This document shows, one piece after another, positions 26,743 to 34,053 of a DNA stretch of 34,055 nt. The position numbers and the translations under genes are program-made. Source of the DNA: Ignavibacteria bacterium (GTDB taxonomy: Bacteria > Bacteroidota > Ignavibacteria > Kapaibacteriales > UBA961); assembly GCA_016873735.1 (NCBI GenBank), contig VGWD01000023.1:1-34055 (forward strand), written 5' to 3'. Below the pieces are notes generated by a model. It worked only from the letters and a program-made list of their open reading frames with translations. It did no database searches and was not told the origin of the DNA. Positions within the stretch are counted from its first letter, which is position 1, and each line of letters begins with the position of its first letter.

Positions 26743-27654
26743 TTACATTTTCACAAATTTCACTACCGACTTTATACCACCCTTATTGATTTCGACATAG
26801 TACATTCCTTTTGCTATGTCAAATGACTGAATCGCAAGGGAATGTCTGCCTTTTGAAACATATTGTGCAGGCAATTCCTGAACCACAGCTCCATGTATAT
26901 TATAGATTCTCACCGGTACCAATTGATCGTCTGACACTTCAAAAGAGATCGTGCTTTCTTCTGAACTTGGGTTTGGATATACTATGGTTTCTTGTTCATA
27001 TCCCGTATTGACATCATACACTGAACTAGAAGTAAGACCACTAATACGCAATTGCACAAATCGATTTGGTGATTCTGTCATTGCATAGATTTTTCCAACG
27101 GGTGCTTGTCGTATATCACGAAAGCGGACATATCCATTCATGCTTCTTGATGAAGATATTTTTTGATTGTCTTTCATCTTCAGCCAATGGATATGTGTTC
27201 CGGCCAATGCAACAATCAAGATATCTGCTTCATTATGTTGATTTTCCACCAGTATGCCTCTACCCAAAGCAGTAGTTTGTCCACCCGTTGCGGACACAGC
27301 ATATGTGATATACACATATTTGTTCTGCTCAAAATTGGGATGAATGGCTATATCCAAAAGTCCGCCTTAATCTTTTTGCACAATGGCAGGCAAACCTGAA
27401 ATCTCATTCAGCGTATTTGTGGAAATAGTATATCGATACATCTTCCCTTGCTTTTCCGTAAAGAGCACTTCATCGCTAGTGATAAATGTGAAACCCCAAG
27501 GAGAGGCCATAGTACTGATGAGTATTTTTTCTTGAGATACCTCGACGATTTTAGATTTTATAGTATAGATATTCACAGCAAAAAGGGTACATATAATTGA
27601 CAAGACTATTTTCATATCAAGAATTGTCTTGGAAAGAGTATGTATATGTTTCAT
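26743..27654 (-). pseudogene. Decayed PQQ-dependent sugar dehydrogenase (GSDH family) with T9SS domain
   Basis: The first frame (27654-27367) has a signal-peptide-like start and the GSDH opening SPWGFTFITSDEVLFTEK, then GLPAIVQKD. It meets a TAA at 27367-27369. The same frame continues at once with GGLLDIAIHPNFEQNKYVYI, so CAA to TAA (KDQGGLLD) explains the break. The family's next 200 or so residues are missing. About 36 residues after the later ATG, ALGRGIL passes directly into DILIVALAGTHIHWLKM, which belongs near the family's C-terminus, followed by RDIRQAPVGKIYAM. The catalytic His and the PQQ and calcium ligands fall in the missing part. The T9SS sorting domain (VYPNPSSE) remains. Soluble aldose dehydrogenases of this family are periplasmic. 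This copy cannot be active. Confidence 0.85.
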
Positions 27655-27920: not shown

Positions 27921-30056
27921 TTAATGCTTAATAAATTTGCCTCTATAGAGTCCTTCATTCGTTTGGACTAGTATAATATAAGTTCCACTCAAGTAGTTGG
28001 AAATATTAAACTGGCTTTTTGATGTTTCGTTTATTAAAACACCTTGTATATCATAAACTTTTATATTCTGAATGATTTCATTGTTTATATCTATATGAAC
28101 AACTCCACCTGTTGGATTGGGATAAATATGTAATCTAAGGTTTTGTATTGATGAGTCATCTATTACCGCGGTAGTAGAGCAATCTCCCTGAAACTCATAA
28201 GCACCAATGTCGTATTTCTTACCGCACGGACGTTGATTTCCTTCAAAATCATCAATGAGATCAACAGTTTTTCCCATATTCAAACAAGGAGAAGTAGGGA
28301 GCAGGTGGAAATCTTTATTATTATAATCTGTAAACATAGGATTTGCAACCCAACAATGATCAAAGTAACCACTAACAACATTATTGCTTCCTGGTAAAAT
28401 TGGCGGAGACAAAGTTGTTGCTAGTGTATCAGTGTAAGGTATCTGATTATCAAAAGCATTATTGTGAAATAAACAATTTTGATAGCTATTCATAGTGGGA
28501 ATAATTCCGTGTATATCTGCAACATATTGCTGCGTATTAAGTGCAGAATATCTACCTTCAAAATTATAGAACCCATTGATAATACAGTTTATAAAAGAAT
28601 TATTTGAGCTTCCCCGCATGGCAAGCATAAAAGATGGGCGATTGACGGGTAGCATAGAAACTGTATCACTCTCTTGTGCAATGAATGTACAATTAATAAA
28701 GTTGTTACCAACTATGCGTTTTCTATTTACTCTATCAATAGGCTTTCCGGCTAAAGTGTGATAATTGGGATAATAATGCTCAGCATAACTGTCAAATAAT
28801 ACCCCAGAAGCTACATTTTCGAAAATACAGTTAGAAAAAGTATTATAACTTGCAGCATATTGAATCTCCCACGGGTAAGAATTCACTTCGGGGTCTGGTA
28901 TGTTTTGTGCAGTCGAGTCTCCATAATAACTGGCACGCAAATCAATTCCCGGAGCTCTATAAATAGAAGAATACTTCGGATCCTTGTAGTAGTACGTGTT
29001 TTTTATATGGCAACGATTAAATGTGTTATATCTACTACTATTTTGAACGTTAAGTGAACCATAAGATAAAGAAACTATGTCTTCTATTAGGTTATTTTGG
29101 ACCTTGTCTCCTCTTAACATAACCGACTCAAAAATATTTTTAGTCGTACAATTTCGGATGGTATTTTTTTCGACAGTCAGCAATTTTTGCGACTCATCGT
29201 AACAGTAACCAATACCAGATGCACATGGTGCGTGATTGTATGAAAGCGTCAAACACAGTCCATGCCCCCCATGCCCCAAATGTGGAAGATATCTCGAGAT
29301 TCTTTCTATATAGCAATGTTCTATTACATTGTATTTTGCCTGATTAGTGCCTGTGTTTGCAGAAATGTAGATATAATAATCTGTATCTCCATGCTTCGAA
29401 AGTGTATCATTACAATATACTTTACAATGCGTAATTAAATTTGAGTCCCCTTTTGCATTGATTCCCTCTGCCGCACCATTTAATACAAAAGCATTGCGTA
29501 TGACGTTGTTATTACCGTATGTAGAAATTGCAGTGCCACTGTAAAAAACATTTACGTCACCAAAATTATATGCAATAATGTTTTCAATCAAATTGTTTGA
29601 TCCGACAATCGAAATACCTAATCGGTAATTCCTGATTTGGAAATTCTTGATTACTATATTATTTCGACTTGTGGAAACAAAATCAATCCCAATACCTGCA
29701 GTAGCTCTATCTACTCCATCTAATGTTGGAAAAATTGTATCATATGTATTCTGAAGAAAAAGATTTAAAGAATCAGGTATCGCATTGCTAACAATATCCC
29801 CAGGCACATTTGTATATCCAATATAGCTTGTATTTGCATTACTTATACTTATGTTTAATGATCCATAATTACCTGCTTTTACCCAAACCGTATCCCCTGC
29901 AATCGCATGTGTTGTGGCATAGCTTAGGCTACCTGGTAAATTGATATTAGAAGAGAGCGTAGAGATACCATCTGGTGCCACGAAATACACCTTTGGGTAT
30001 GTGGTTGATGGTTGTAAAATTAGAATACAAAGTAAAAACTTGAAAGGTAATCTCAT
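27921..30056 (-). CDS. Secreted right-handed beta-helix protein with choice-of-anchor Q and T9SS domains
   Basis: A signal peptide covers about residues 1-22. Residues about 50-590 form a parallel beta-helix, shown by recurring N-rich rungs such as NNIVIKNFQIRN, NNLIENIIAYN, NNVIRNAFVLN, YNVIEHCYIER, NTIRNCTTKN and NNSFINCIINGF. Pectate-lyase-like and polysaccharide-binding proteins share this fold; no lyase-specific catalytic set is seen. At about 585-630 DFHLLPTSPCLNMG, DFEGNQRPCG and YDIGAYEFQG match choice-of-anchor Q. The last 75 residues are a T9SS type A sorting domain starting IYPNPTGG. The protein should be surface-attached or released; a role in glycan handling is an inference. It follows repeat copy A on the minus strand. 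Confidence 0.86.
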   Translation of the reverse strand: MRLPFKFLLCILILQPSTTYPKVYFVAPDGISTLSSNINLPGSLSYATTHAIAGDTVWVKAGNYGSLNISISNANTSYIGYTNVPGDIVSNAIPDSLNLFLQNTYDTIFPTLDGVDRATAGIGIDFVSTSRNNIVIKNFQIRNYRLGISIVGSNNLIENIIAYNFGDVNVFYSGTAISTYGNNNVIRNAFVLNGAAEGINAKGDSNLITHCKVYCNDTLSKHGDTDYYIYISANTGTNQAKYNVIEHCYIERISRYLPHLGHGGHGLCLTLSYNHAPCASGIGYCYDESQKLLTVEKNTIRNCTTKNIFESVMLRGDKVQNNLIEDIVSLSYGSLNVQNSSRYNTFNRCHIKNTYYYKDPKYSSIYRAPGIDLRASYYGDSTAQNIPDPEVNSYPWEIQYAASYNTFSNCIFENVASGVLFDSYAEHYYPNYHTLAGKPIDRVNRKRIVGNNFINCTFIAQESDTVSMLPVNRPSFMLAMRGSSNNSFINCIINGFYNFEGRYSALNTQQYVADIHGIIPTMNSYQNCLFHNNAFDNQIPYTDTLATTLSPPILPGSNNVVSGYFDHCWVANPMFTDYNNKDFHLLPTSPCLNMGKTVDLIDDFEGNQRPCGKKYDIGAYEFQGDCSTTAVIDDSSIQNLRLHIYPNPTGGVVHIDINNEIIQNIKVYDIQGVLINETSKSQFNISNYLSGTYIILVQTNEGLYRGKFIKH

Positions 30057-30112
30057 TTGGTATATCCTTTGTTTTTACCATTCCACTTGTCTTCTGTTTA
30101 AGTAGCTGATTG

Positions 30113-30240
30113 CTAACGTTTATCGGCTACCCAAATGTGGCGATTTCGAAACGATTCACTGTCAACCAAGCACAAACTTTGATAGATGCACAAAGCTTCA
30201 TTTAACCACTGAACCGCCACTTTTGGGTAGGTGCTGTTAG
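30113..30240. repeat. Intergenic repeat copy A: long imperfect palindrome
   Basis: The outer ends CTAAC (30113-30117) and GTTAG (30236-30240) pair. The inner arms TACCCAAATGTGGCG (30128-30142) and CGCCACTTTTGGGTA (30215-30229) pair at 14 of 15 bases, enclosing about 72 bases. The sequence at 30201-30219 recurs with one inserted base at 32942-32961. The arms and CTAAC/GTTAG ends recall an integron attC site, but the ends do not fit RYYYAAC and GTTRRRY. The SulP stop codon lies in its outer arm. Confidence 0.7.
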
Positions 30241-31628
30241 TGGCTGGTTTCCTTCGGATTTATTCTTTTGAAAGCATATTTCACCACAAAATAGATGATT
30301 AGTGCCGATAATACTCCCGTTAGAAAATCAGTCATTGGAACCATAACGGCGGTGTAGAGCATAATTGAAAACTCAAATTTTCCGAGATGCTTTATTTCTT
30401 TAATCTCTGCCGGCTTAATCATATTGCTTGCTACCCATACTAATATACCGCCAATACAAGCCATGGGAACTAACTCTAAATATTGAGCTAAATAATATGC
30501 CATTACCAGTTTTAAAATAGCTTTAAAATATCCTGCTAATGGTGTTCTTGCTCCAGATTTAATGCTTGTTGCTGTTCGTGCCAATGCGCCTGTACATGGA
30601 AATCCTTGCACCAATGGAACAAGAATTTGCACCAATCCTTGCCCGAAAAATTCTTTGTCAGGATTAAACGGTGTTTTATCGTTTTTAGCTAACCTATCTG
30701 CCATTGAAGAACACAAAATACTTTCCACCCCTGAAATAAATACAATTCCAAAAACAAAATAGCAGATATCGTAAATTACGCCACCTGTTATTTCAGGTAA
30801 AATAGGTAATTGTATTTTGAAAAAATTGTTGGGAATAGAACCGTATAAGTCTCTTACAAGAATAATATTCTTGTCGGCTAAAACGGTAGCAGATAGCAAT
30901 GTAGCTGTGCCCATAGCAATTACAGGACCTGGAATAAATATAGAGATACGCAATAATATTTTTGCCAAAGCAAAGGTCAATAAACCAAGAAAGATAGACC
31001 AGGGATTGATAATGTTTAAATTACTGAAAGCCAAAGACAAATTATGTAAAAGCCCACCTTTGATGTCTTCATCTTGACCTAAGAAATCTTTAAAATTTTC
31101 AATACCTAAAATATCTTCCAAATTGGTAAGTGCAATTGCACAAGCTATTCCAATGGTAAACCCAACAATGATAGAGTTAGGAACAAGTTTGGCGTATTTT
31201 CCAACACCATATATTCCCATTATTATTAAAATAATTCCGGAGATAATGGAAACCAAAACAAGGAAACCATGAGCCGTCTCAAAATTGCCTCCACTTGCAG
31301 GGCCATATTTTGCTATCAGTCCTGCTATAATAGGAATAAATGCAGCAGTTGGTCCATACACCTGATATTTTGAGCCACCAAAGGTTCTTCCAACCACACA
31401 GGCTAATGCTCCTGCAATAATTCCATGTTCCGGTCGCATACCGTTTGCCATTGCAAAACCCATTGCCATAGGAATGGCAGTTAGTGCAACTATTAGTCCA
31501 GCACTTAAATCCTGATAAGTTGTTTTTAACCAGTTTTCTTTGGTTAAATCTTCCCATCTTGAGTCAAAAAATGTGAAGAATAATTTTAGCCTTCCAAGAG
31601 GCGTTGTTGGGAATTTTACTTTGTCCAT
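30237..31628 (-). CDS. SulP-family inorganic anion transporter without a STAS domain
   Basis: This inner-membrane transporter probably moves bicarbonate or sulfate. Residues about 35-130 carry the SulP opening: LSAGLIVALTAIPMAMGFAMANG, then GGSKYQVYGPTAAFIPI. About ten to twelve hydrophobic segments follow, including GFLVLVSIISGIILIIMGIYG and FGIVFISGVESILCSSMADR. QGLVQILVPLVQGFPCTGALARTATSIKSGARTPLAG is the well-conserved C-terminal half signature. The protein ends about 20 residues after the last membrane segment, so the cytoplasmic STAS domain of typical SulP proteins is absent. STAS-less forms are often found beside carbonic anhydrases, which supports bicarbonate here. It lies downstream of the iota-CA gene and the beta-CA-like scrap, and its stop codon sits in repeat A. 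Confidence 0.9.
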   Translation of the reverse strand: MDKVKFPTTPLGRLKLFFTFFDSRWEDLTKENWLKTTYQDLSAGLIVALTAIPMAMGFAMANGMRPEHGIIAGALACVVGRTFGGSKYQVYGPTAAFIPIIAGLIAKYGPASGGNFETAHGFLVLVSIISGIILIIMGIYGVGKYAKLVPNSIIVGFTIGIACAIALTNLEDILGIENFKDFLGQDEDIKGGLLHNLSLAFSNLNIINPWSIFLGLLTFALAKILLRISIFIPGPVIAMGTATLLSATVLADKNIILVRDLYGSIPNNFFKIQLPILPEITGGVIYDICYFVFGIVFISGVESILCSSMADRLAKNDKTPFNPDKEFFGQGLVQILVPLVQGFPCTGALARTATSIKSGARTPLAGYFKAILKLVMAYYLAQYLELVPMACIGGILVWVASNMIKPAEIKEIKHLGKFEFSIMLYTAVMVPMTDFLTGVLSALIIYFVVKYAFKRINPKETSH

Positions 31629-31662
31629 AAGTTATAATATTTTTAATTAAATTCTTTAGTAA

Positions 31663-31749
31663 TTAAATAGAAGAAGTTTCCTTATAAAAAGTAACCTCTT
31701 CCGTTGATAATTCGTGTATACCACCTACAATACCAATTTCTCTAGTCAT
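31663..31749 (-). pseudogene. 28-codon ORF resembling the C-terminus of a beta-carbonic anhydrase
   Basis: The minus-strand frame begins at an ATG sharing one base with the stop of the iota-CA gene (TAATG) and ends at 31663. The product MTREIGIVGGIHELSTEEV continues TFYKETSSI. This fits the last strand pair of beta-carbonic anhydrases (pattern I.IVG...-..T..V.F). The zinc-binding CxDxR and HxxC regions are absent. It may be the tail of a lost beta-CA, which commonly neighbours SulP, or a small translated peptide coupled to the gene above. Confidence 0.4.
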
Positions 31750-32240
31750 TAGGTAATTGGATTTGGATTGTAAGGAAGAGAAGAATGATGTAAACAAATT
31801 TTTACGTTTCCTTCATTATCAATTCTGAAAACAAAACTTTTATTTACAAAGATTTCTCTCTTGGCTGAAATAAAGTGAATATTACATTGAACAAGAGCCA
31901 GATTTCCATTCAAAATAAAGTCTTCGTTAGCAAACCAAACTTTGGTCCATGGCTCCAACAAAAATCCATGATCGTTTGGATAGGAGGGGTTTTTTCCCAC
32001 AAAATAAGCCAATGCTCCTTCTTTTGTCGGTCTGAATGTTTGCTCTCCTGATGTGAGAGTTGGTTTGAATAATACACTTCCATTGTCATAGTCGTACGCT
32101 TCGGATAATACCTGATTGGCAAATGCTTTAACATCGCCTCCTTCATCATATACTTTTCCTGTGGCTACAACGGCATTACACCATCCTTGTAAAGTTGTTT
32201 TCACCATTTCTGCGGTGAATTGATTGTTTAAATTTTCCAT
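31749..32240 (-). CDS. Iota-class carbonic anhydrase (COG4337, CaMKII-association/NTF2-like fold)
   Basis: This 163-residue protein probably hydrates CO2 to bicarbonate. It matches the iota-CA family, whose members can act without a metal ion. The N-terminal helix block is TLQGWCNAVVATGKVY; GSVLFKPT (about 54-61) and GALAYFVG (about 75-82) supply the conserved Thr and Tyr. DHGFLLEPWTKVWFAN follows, and HHSSLPY (about 151-157) supplies the conserved His and Ser. It differs from the usual family near the end of the barrel: SFVFRI stands where EYTFGY-like is common. No signal peptide is seen. The ATG at 32240 is preferred; a GTG at 32300 would put 20 extra residues inside a palindrome. It is followed by the beta-CA-like scrap and SulP, suggesting a bicarbonate module. 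Some databases may mislabel this family. Confidence 0.75.
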   Translation of the reverse strand: MENLNNQFTAEMVKTTLQGWCNAVVATGKVYDEGGDVKAFANQVLSEAYDYDNGSVLFKPTLTSGEQTFRPTKEGALAYFVGKNPSYPNDHGFLLEPWTKVWFANEDFILNGNLALVQCNIHFISAKREIFVNKSFVFRIDNEGNVKICLHHSSLPYNPNPIT

Positions 32241-32298
32241 TTCTAAAGGTAAAAAAGTGTTGAATTTGTTTTGATTTAATTGAATAATCTCTCTTCCC

Positions 32299-32320
32299 AC
32301 CTATTATTACAACAATAGGT
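32299..32320. promoter_or_regulatory. Palindrome upstream of the iota-CA gene
   Basis: ACCTATT (32299-32305) and AATAGGT (32314-32320) form a perfect 7-bp inverted repeat with an 8-base spacer. It lies 59 to 80 bases before the preferred iota-CA start and overlaps the alternative GTG start. It may be an operator or an mRNA hairpin. Confidence 0.35.
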
Positions 32321-32359: not shown

Positions 32360-32668
32360 TTAAATGTTAGGAGGGGGAGATTCCAGCAAAATAATCGGCT
32401 GCTCCAGCTTGACCAAGGCAGCAATAACGTATAATTTAGACTGAAATAAAGTTTGAGTAGGTTTATGTTGTAAAGAGGCAAATTCTTTTAAGTCATCTTC
32501 CACACCTTTATCTTCCAATTTTTCTTCCATATCGTTTTCAGTGTTTTCTGAATCGCTGTATTCAGTGCAAATGTTTTCAGAAACCATCTTTTTGATGGAA
32601 ATATCTATGTTGGTCGCATAAACGGTAAATACGAACAGAAGGGTCGATATTAAGTAATACGCTTTCAT
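32360..32668 (-). CDS. Small exported acidic protein of unknown function
   Basis: The 102-residue product begins with a hydrophobic signal (YYLISTLLFVFTVYA, about 4-18). A short basic patch (SIKKM) is followed by a strongly acidic segment at about 37-66 (EYSDSENTENDMEEKLEDKG). The C-terminal 35 residues are more hydrophobic (SKLYVIAALVKLEQPIILLE) and end in SPPPNI. One cysteine is present. I do not recognise a family. It is the first gene of the SulP/iota-CA block and lies 119 bases before the iota-CA start, so it may be cotranscribed or have a separate promoter. Its start region includes an 11-base direct repeat (TTTGAATCAGG at 32668 and 32698, 30 bases apart). Confidence 0.6.
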   Translation of the reverse strand: MKAYYLISTLLFVFTVYATNIDISIKKMVSENICTEYSDSENTENDMEEKLEDKGVEDDLKEFASLQHKPTQTLFQSKLYVIAALVKLEQPIILLESPPPNI

Positions 32669-32908
32669 TTGAATCAGGCGTAAAAATAGGCAAAAAATTT
32701 GAATCAGGGGTTATTTACAAAATTAATTCAGAGGAGTATTTTCTTTGACATTTATCAAAAATTACGATTTGCTTTTTATTTGTTTAAAAATTTTGTGATG
32801 TCCTCTTTTTAGAACCCCTTAAGCCATATTTGGAGTGAAGGTCGCCTGCATTTCTTTTGTTAAGGTCTTCATACTTTTTATTTATTGTTTACTGTGGTTA
32901 AATGGATC
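32669..32908. other. AT-rich non-coding stretch
   Basis: No gene is seen. It contains the second copy of the 11-base direct repeat TTTGAATCAGG (32698-32708), which may matter for control of the small acidic-protein gene. On the minus strand TATTTTTA near 32690 differs from TAnnTTTG at one position. With repeat copy B this makes a gap of about 320 bases. Confidence 0.4.
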
Positions 32909-32990
32909 TATAACGGTTCGCGGCTATACGCGGACAGGGATTTTAACCACTGAACCCGCCATTGAGACAAACGGCTGTTGTGGGGTGGTT
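32909..32990. repeat. Intergenic repeat copy B, diverged from copy A
   Basis: The segment 32942-32961 matches 30201-30219 of copy A except for one inserted base. The left part TAACGGTTCGCGGCTATAC aligns with TAACGTTTATCGGCTAC of copy A, and both end near GCTGTT(A)G then a GGTTT. Copy B is about 50 bases shorter and its arms pair less well. Both copies lie just downstream of a minus-strand stop codon (30237 and 32990) in the same orientation. Confidence 0.6.
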
Positions 32991-34053
32991 TATTCCTTTA
33001 TTATTTTAAATGTCTGCTTCACGTTGCTTCCAATGCAAAACATGTAAATTCCATCTGATAAATTGCCTAAATCAATTGTTGTATTTTCTTGGTTGATTAT
33101 ACCAGTCAAAACAACTCTTCCTATGTTATCATAAATGGTGTAAACGTTACCGAAAAGTTTAATGTCTATATTTAGATTAATTATTCCTTCCACAGGGTTT
33201 GGATAAATCTTAATATTAGTTTCGCCAAGCTCTTTGGACTCTTCAATTTTAGTTGTTGTATTTTCCCATACTCTGCTTTCTCCATTTGGAAAATTAAACG
33301 CGTTGAGTTCGGTCATTATAAGAGCCGAGATATCAGAAAACCTGTCGAGTATGCGCTGATCAATCTGTGGATGGGAAGCAAATGGTTTTACAGGTGATTT
33401 TTTGTGTTGAGCTGAATAAACTATCATTGCTGTCAAGAAATAAGAGCTTGGTTTTCCATGTGGACCTAGGTCCTCGAAAATTGAATCCACAGGCATATCA
33501 GATAATAAGCCTCCTTGCCGCCAAAGTTTTGCACAAATCATAGATGACGGAATTAGTTTTGTGTTCACTATACCTGCTTTTTTAATCAAGCTATCCTGAA
33601 GGTCCTTCCAAAATCCGTTGGAATTGCCTGTAGCATAATTAAGATAATTAACCCATTGTGCTGAACTGGGCGCTTTACCCGTGCTTAGGCTCCAATCCTT
33701 ACCATTCATGATATAGTTTTTTTCTATCTTAGGCCAGCATTCATACAAATACAAATTTACTCCGGGGTCATTCGCATTTAGCCAATTGAAAATAGAAGCA
33801 ATACTGTCTGTTGCTTTTCGAATTGTGCCGGGTATTCTCTGGCCAATTGAACCACCATAATCATATATGATTTCCCAATTCATGTAAGTCAGCACCACAT
33901 TCTGGTGAGCACCAGAAACATAAGCCCCACCCGGAGTCATTGCAGAACCATGGTTAGAAAATGTAAACGCCCAGCAATGATCGGGCTATGATCGGGCGGT
34001 AGTGCAGTGGCACCGTTTTGTCCCGGAGTATGTTTGCCACTTGTAAGGCACAC
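32990..34053 (-). pseudogene. Frameshifted, 5'-partial T9SS protein with SGNH-hydrolase-like features
   Basis: The open frame from 33940 to 32990 encodes the C-terminal 316 residues. Reading upstream, the frame stays coding-like (DHCWAFTFSNHGSAMTPGG) and then hits a TAG at 33986-33988. Removing one copy of an 11-bp tandem duplication restores ATALPPDHCWAFTFSNHG. The restored upstream frame stays open to the window edge (CLTSGKHTPGQNG). At about residue 157 of the 316, EDLGPHGKPSSYFLTAMIVYSA resembles the Asp-His region and following helix of SGNH hydrolases. The N-terminal Ser region lies off the window. The last 75 residues are a T9SS sorting domain (IYPNPVEG). Sequencing error cannot be excluded. 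Confidence 0.65.
33977..33998. repeat. 11-bp tandem duplication causing a frameshift
   Basis: ATGATCGGGCT (33977-33987) is followed directly by ATGATCGGGCG (33988-33998), identical at 10 of 11 bases. Eleven is not a multiple of three, so it breaks the frame of the T9SS gene. On the minus strand removal of one copy rejoins the two coding-like frames. Confidence 0.8.

What the first reader, a model, noticed from the sequence alone, without database searches (positions are those of the whole stretch)
30237..32240. Iota-carbonic anhydrase paired with a STAS-less SulP transporter
The 163-residue protein carries FKPT, AYFVG and HHSSLPY motifs of the iota-class carbonic anhydrases, a recently described class that can act without metal. 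It sits 121 bases upstream of a SulP transporter on the same strand. SulP is usually found next to beta-CA. A transporter paired with a metal-free CA would be a compact bicarbonate uptake or CO2-supply unit, perhaps favoured when zinc is scarce.
Basis: partly seen in the sequence, partly recalled or inferred. Interest (0 to 1): 0.72.

Follow-up and report, generated by a model that had tools for sequence, protein, structure and literature searches.

The report
Metal-free carbonic anhydrase replaced zinc one
In this bacterium the usual zinc carbonic anhydrase beside a SulP anion (probably bicarbonate) transporter has been swapped, in the same gene slot, for a member of the metal-free class, and broken pieces of the old gene still lie on both sides of the new one.

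Summary
Window 31749-32240 (minus strand) encodes an iota-class carbonic anhydrase (39% identical to all2909, model TM 0.92 to 7c5v, all four catalytic residues kept). A STAS-less SulP follows 120 bases downstream. The pair is not a conserved Bacteroidota partnership: 0 of 80 loci of this SulP family in the genome scan carry an iota-CA, and no other sampled Bacteroidota iota-CA locus has a SulP beside it. Instead, the iota-CA sits where relatives keep a zinc beta-CA. The N-terminal (codons 1-46) and C-terminal (last 26 codons) remnants of that beta-CA still bracket it. A distant MAG (G485) has the same SulP (97%) beside a beta-CA with a nonsense codon and a zinc-ligand His-to-Gln change. Its 90% identical iota-CA lies at another locus, before another (frameshifted) SulP, with the same beta-CA C-terminal scar. 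The window genome has no beta-CA or alpha-CA; most congeners carry a beta-CA, fused to a SulP-STAS protein in the two read. The 2.7-kb module is compositionally foreign in a native contig and flanked by two attC-like repeats. Best reading: a laterally acquired CO2-to-bicarbonate/anion-import unit whose zinc enzyme was displaced by a metal-free-class one. Transport substrate and metal independence are inferred.

The parts
31749..32240 (-). iota-class carbonic anhydrase, 163 aa, no signal peptide (predicted cytosolic); T61, Y79, H151, S153 = T106, Y124, H197, S199 of all2909
   Evidence: dN/dS 0.12 against the G485 copy
30237..31628 (-). STAS-less SulP anion transporter, 463 aa (SulP1)
   Evidence: dN/dS 0.09 against G485
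31663..31743 (-). remnant of the C-terminal 26 codons and stop of a beta-CA (REIGIVGGIHELSTEEVTFYKETSSI*), between iota-CA stop and SulP start
   Evidence: the same scar and junction are in G485 (L142)
32762..32872 (-). remnant of the N-terminal ~46 codons of a beta-CA (MKTLTKEMQATFTPNMA*GVLKRG...), with stops
   Evidence: 84% nt identity to the L058 beta-CA start; a degraded copy sits in the same place in G491 (L143)
32360..32668 (-). 102-aa protein with an N-terminal signal or anchor and an acidic body, no family; precedes the CA here, in L058 and in L143
   Evidence: weak constraint, dN/dS 0.5-0.9
30105..30245 (-). attC-like imperfect palindromic repeat overlapping the SulP stop (3' boundary of module)
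   Evidence: copies after SulP1 in L058 and L060, three in L063, one on G000 contig 12
32885..32995 (-). second, shorter copy of the same repeat family, same orientation, starting at the stop of the preceding gene (5' boundary of module)
32990..33940 (-). flanking gene: protein with a type IX secretion C-terminal tail
27921..30056 (-). flanking gene: 711-aa protein with a type IX secretion C-terminal tail
   Evidence: foreign composition

Best explanation
This is a CA-SulP inorganic-carbon supply unit in which a metal-free-class (iota) carbonic anhydrase has taken the place of the zinc beta-CA in the same slot. Shown by sequence: the iota-CA lies between the two broken ends of a beta-CA gene, directly upstream of a STAS-less SulP whose relatives keep beta-CA there; the genome has no other beta-CA or alpha-CA; both genes evolve under purifying selection; and the module entered a native contig laterally. 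Also shown: the iota-CA is nested among lipoprotein-type iota-CAs but has no export signal, so it is predicted to be cytosolic like the beta-CA it replaced. Inferred: SulP imports bicarbonate (or exchanges it), and the iota-CA hydrates CO2 in the cytosol, so both feed HCO3- to carboxylases. The one-way CO2-hydration activity reported for COG4337 enzymes would suit this supply role. Inferred: the replacement happened once, before the module spread between lineages, probably as an integron-like cassette.
For: Identity: NF047901 E 1.7e-38, 7c5v E 1e-31 with exact mapping of T106/Y124/H197/S199 and F138, model pLDDT 92, TM 0.92 to 7c5v. Displacement: C-terminal remnant against an intact beta-CA E 6e-9, N-terminal remnant E 2e-6, DNA match 95.6% running from the beta-CA end through SulP into L058. 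No PF00484 in G000, against hits in 5 of 6 congeners, seen as SulP-STAS-beta-CA fusions in G116 and G119. No PF00194. Decay of the old enzyme in G485: nonsense codon 41 and zinc-ligand His to Gln. Second instance: G485 C28 has 129-aa gene, iota-CA (90%), the identical scar, then another SulP and a fragment of SulP1. Third, incomplete: G491 has beta-CA N-remnant, 107-aa gene and iota-CA 1-45 at one contig end and SulP1 140-463 at another. Lateral transfer: window 1-26 kb is collinear with congener G119, the module's tetranucleotide r to its own genome is 0.74 against 0.87-0.94 for native stretches, and SulP is 97% identical although MetK is 59%. Selection: dN/dS 0.09 and 0.12. Signal loss and tree. 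One-way hydration: PMC8132391. Related pairs in the literature: beta-CA/SulP operon in M. capsulatus (PMC11423575), iota-CA in place of CsoSCA in Thiomicrospira carboxysomes (PMC12628692).
Against: No transport or CA activity was measured. This SulP is not a BicA by model (NF050096 124.7 bits against an 880 cut-off), and not every SulP moves bicarbonate: of two T. pelophila SulPs only one rescued a CA-less E. coli (PMC12628692). The iota-CA is on a long branch (1.32), so its catalytic properties may differ. A gamma-CA-like protein is present, so the iota-CA need not be the only CA. G485 and G491 are MAGs, and the G491 operon is interrupted by a contig gap. The order of the 102-aa gene and the beta-CA N-remnant differs from L058, so the recombination path is not resolved.
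Confidence: 0.68

Rival explanations
1. Chance neighbours: the iota-CA was dropped by recombination into a dead beta-CA gene and has no functional tie to SulP, which is an ordinary sulfate or dicarboxylate permease.
For: The pair is rare. SulP1 relatives mostly sit behind a UspA-like gene and a two-component system, not a CA. The best NCBIfam scores are for DauA and sulfate permease, not BicA.
Against: The replaced gene was itself a CA. In G485 the beta-CA is dead by two changes while iota-CA and SulP1 are intact. The iota-CA lies before a SulP in both loci that can be read through, two different SulPs. The SulP-CA fusions of the congeners are missing from G000, as expected if this module took over the role.
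Confidence: 0.2
2. Relic: the whole module is decaying, with the iota-CA as the latest inactive occupant.
For: Many broken genes in the module's history: beta-CA ends in the window, beta-CA and SulP2 in G485. The 102-aa gene is weakly constrained.
Against: Intact reading frames, all catalytic residues, and dN/dS of 0.09-0.12 for SulP and iota-CA.
Confidence: 0.07
3. Assembly or binning artefact: a contig end from another organism joined to this genome.
For: The module has foreign composition and lies near the contig end, beyond the last stretch collinear with G119.
Against: The same iota-CA/beta-CA scar junction was assembled independently in G485. The first 26 kb are collinear with a congener. 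The genome is 99.9% complete with 0.4% contamination and otherwise lacks the SulP-CA gene of its genus.
Confidence: 0.05

Closest known systems
iota-class (COG4337) carbonic anhydrase all2909 of Anabaena (PDB 7c5v)
   Same: fold (TM 0.92), catalytic Thr/Tyr/His/Ser and pocket Phe, single domain
   Different: 39% identity; here it is encoded in a SulP operon in the slot of a beta-CA
SulP-beta-CA pairs and fusions (as in the congeners G116 and G119; reviewed by Felce and Saier 2004, known to me from citations only)
   Same: a CA gene joined to a SulP transporter
   Different: the CA here is of an unrelated, metal-free class, the SulP has no STAS domain and the two are separate genes
iota-CA in place of CsoSCA in Thiomicrospira carboxysomes (PMC12628692, citing Wieschollek et al. 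2024)
   Same: an iota-CA stands in for a beta-type CA in a conserved locus, with a SulP encoded near it
   Different: carboxysomal and autotrophic; no remnants of the displaced gene reported in the passages I read
BicA bicarbonate transporter (PDB 6ki1)
   Same: SulP membrane fold (E 9e-17 in the fold search, 23% identity)
   Different: no STAS domain here; scores far below the BicA model; substrate unknown

Membership tests
iota-class carbonic anhydrase (COG4337) | sequence similarity to characterised members | tested here: met
   7c5v E 1e-31, 7c5x E 2e-69; NF047901 E 1.7e-38
iota-class carbonic anhydrase (COG4337) | score over the NCBIfam equivalog cut-off (NF047901, 350 bits) | tested here: not met
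   132 bits; the G485 copy scores 118 bits. The profile has 205 positions and the match starts at position 52; as an equivalog model it marks a narrower group than the class
iota-class carbonic anhydrase (COG4337) | catalytic Thr106, Tyr124, His197, Ser199 | tested here: met
   T61, Y79, H151, S153
iota-class carbonic anhydrase (COG4337) | cone-shaped alpha+beta barrel fold | tested here: met
   AF2 pLDDT 92.3; 7c5v TM 0.92, rmsd 2.0
iota-class carbonic anhydrase (COG4337) | CO2 hydration without metal | not testable with these tools
   needs purified protein
SulP/SLC26 transporter | sulfate-transporter membrane domain | tested here: met
   PF00916 E 1.7e-60; SLC26 folds at the top of the fold search
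SulP/SLC26 transporter | C-terminal STAS domain (usual, not universal) | tested here: not met
   no Pfam STAS hit, 463 aa; in the same clade 57 of 80 homologues are 500 aa or shorter
BicA bicarbonate transporter | score over the NF050096 cut-off | tested here: not met
   124.7 against 880 bits
BicA bicarbonate transporter | sodium-dependent HCO3- transport | not testable with these tools
   needs an uptake assay
integron gene cassette | attC recombination site after the stop codon | tested here: inconclusive
   two same-family imperfect palindromes in one orientation flank the module, but canonical RYYYAAC/GTTRRRY boxes are imperfect by eye and no attC model was available
integron gene cassette | integron integrase IntI in the genome | not tested

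The most novel reading that the evidence does not exclude
A mobile, integron-like cassette carries a metal-independent inorganic-carbon module (cytosolic iota-CA plus SulP) that displaces zinc beta-CA/SulP modules across distant Bacteroidota lineages, the old zinc enzyme being destroyed and the once-exported iota-CA moved to the cytosol by losing its lipoprotein signal when it was captured.
Probability: 0.4. Interest if true: 0.75.

Novelty: new variant of a known kind. Interest (0 to 1): 0.57.

Why it matters
Replacement of one enzyme by an unrelated one is usually inferred from absence. Here both ends of the displaced gene remain around the newcomer, and a relative preserves the old enzyme in a dead state. 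It gives a natural test of whether a metal-free CA, reported to hydrate CO2 but not dehydrate bicarbonate, can do the job of a reversible zinc CA next to a SulP transporter, and it hints at the direction of carbon flow through CA-SulP pairs.

Tried and rejected
CaMKII-association domain in Pfam: no hit; this is uninformative for the class. Viral contigs: no relative. Conserved iota-CA/SulP pair across Bacteroidota: rejected. Misbinned contig: rejected by collinearity with G119 after five region fetches. Iota-CA as sole CA: rejected as stated, because a gamma-CA-like gene exists. Rfam: only a meaningless miRNA match. Promoter and terminator scans: at chance level. Literature: no paper in the held library describes an iota-CA paired with a SulP in Bacteroidota; the Wieschollek 2024 paper itself is not held.

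Full report
What is there. On the minus strand the window has, in transcription order, a remnant of a beta-CA start (32872-32762), a 102-aa gene (32668-32360), an iota-CA gene (32240-31749), a remnant of a beta-CA end (31743-31663) and a STAS-less SulP gene (31628-30237). The iota-CA is 39% identical to all2909 in the structural match. Its catalytic Thr, Tyr, His and Ser and the pocket Phe map exactly, and the AlphaFold2 model (pLDDT 92) superposes on 7c5v with TM 0.92. NF047901 matches with E 1.7e-38 but below its equivalog cut-off. The SulP has the PF00916 domain only, and its model matches SLC26 folds and BicA.

The pair is rare. A genome scan with the SulP gave 80 loci; none has an iota-CA. 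A draw of 395 genomes of the phylum and the 123 genomes of the order gave 25 iota-CA loci, the window's own included, in 22 genomes. None of the others encodes a SulP within 1.5 kb, although the same probe does detect the more distant SulP2 type. The usual neighbours of this SulP family are a UspA-like gene in 46 loci, a two-component system in about 30, and a beta-CA within three genes in at least 22.

Displacement. In L058 (genome G485, a MAG whose SulP is 97% identical) the order is 120-aa gene, beta-CA, SulP. The window matches L058 at 95.6% from inside the beta-CA end through SulP; upstream, the iota-CA stands where the beta-CA body should be. The C-terminal remnant matches an intact beta-CA with E 6e-9 and the N-terminal one with E 2e-6. 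No Pro_CA match exists in the window genome. Five of six congeners have one in a 735-756-aa frame; the two I read (G116, G119) are SulP-STAS-beta-CA fusions. The window genome has only one SulP, no alpha-CA, and one gamma-CA-like protein.

Relatives. G485's beta-CA has a nonsense codon at position 41 and Gln for the zinc-ligand His, yet is otherwise 83% identical to an intact one. G485 has an iota-CA 90% identical to the window's at another locus (C28), followed by the same beta-CA scar with the same junction, a SulP of another subfamily with two frameshifts, and a fragment of SulP1. G491 ends one contig inside an iota-CA (96% over 45 residues) preceded by a 107-aa gene, a leader resembling that of the L058 beta-CA (68%), and a beta-CA N-remnant; another contig ends inside SulP1. 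The shared junction implies one displacement event; the later shuffling is not resolved.

Lateral arrival. The first 26 kb of the window are collinear with congener G119. The module's composition is far outside the native range and close to that of G485. MetK is 59% identical between G000 and G485, no higher than for the other genomes of its family and order, while SulP is 97%. Two members of one attC-like palindromic repeat family, in one orientation and each at the end of a reading frame, bracket the module; further copies follow SulP1 in L058 and L060, occur three times in a Runella locus (L063), and once elsewhere in the genome. That they are integron sites is a lead, not a test.

Function. 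SulP and iota-CA show dN/dS of 0.09 and 0.12 against G485. The sister iota-CAs in the tree (L003-L011) carry lipoprotein-type signals; the window and G485 copies do not, so cytosolic location is predicted. COG4337 enzymes were reported active without metal and without measurable dehydration (PMC8132391). I infer a unit that raises cytosolic bicarbonate: import by SulP plus trapping of CO2 by hydration. Against this, SulP substrates cannot be read from sequence and only some SulPs rescue a CA-less host (PMC12628692).

Verdict. The enzyme class is known and SulP-CA pairs are known. An iota-CA occupying a SulP-linked beta-CA slot, with both beta-CA ends retained, was not found in the held literature; the nearest precedent is the iota-CA that stands in for CsoSCA in Thiomicrospira carboxysomes. 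I rate it a new variant of a known kind.

Noticed in passing
window 30105-30245 and 32885-32995: Two members of an attC-like ~125-bp palindromic repeat family in one orientation, each at the end of a reading frame; three more in L063 (Runella), one after SulP1 in L058 and in L060, one on G000 contig 12.
   Followed up: partly
L058:5328-5966: beta-CA of G485 with a nonsense codon and the zinc-ligand His changed to Gln, otherwise 83% identical to an intact beta-CA.
   Followed up: yes
L142:8292-10650: G485: iota-CA, beta-CA scar, a SulP with two frameshifts, then a fragment of SulP1: serial in-place replacement of both partners.
   Followed up: partly
L155, L158 (and probably L154, L156, L157): SulP-STAS-beta-CA fusion proteins in the genus of the window genome; read in G119 and G116, inferred from the 735-756-aa frames in the others.
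   Followed up: partly
L056, L060-L135 (46 loci): SulP1 relatives are preceded by a UspA-like gene, and about 30 also by a sensor kinase and a response regulator: a conserved operon for which no literature was looked up.
   Followed up: no
window 32272-32318: Dyad ACCTATT-8-AATAGGT in the leader of the iota-CA, kept in G485; possible operator or hairpin.
   Followed up: no
window 26743-27654: A glucose/sorbosone dehydrogenase-like gene split in two frames, the second ending in a type IX secretion tail; probably broken.
   Followed up: no
window 27921-30056: T9SS-tailed 711-aa gene next to the module whose composition is also outside the native range.
   Followed up: no
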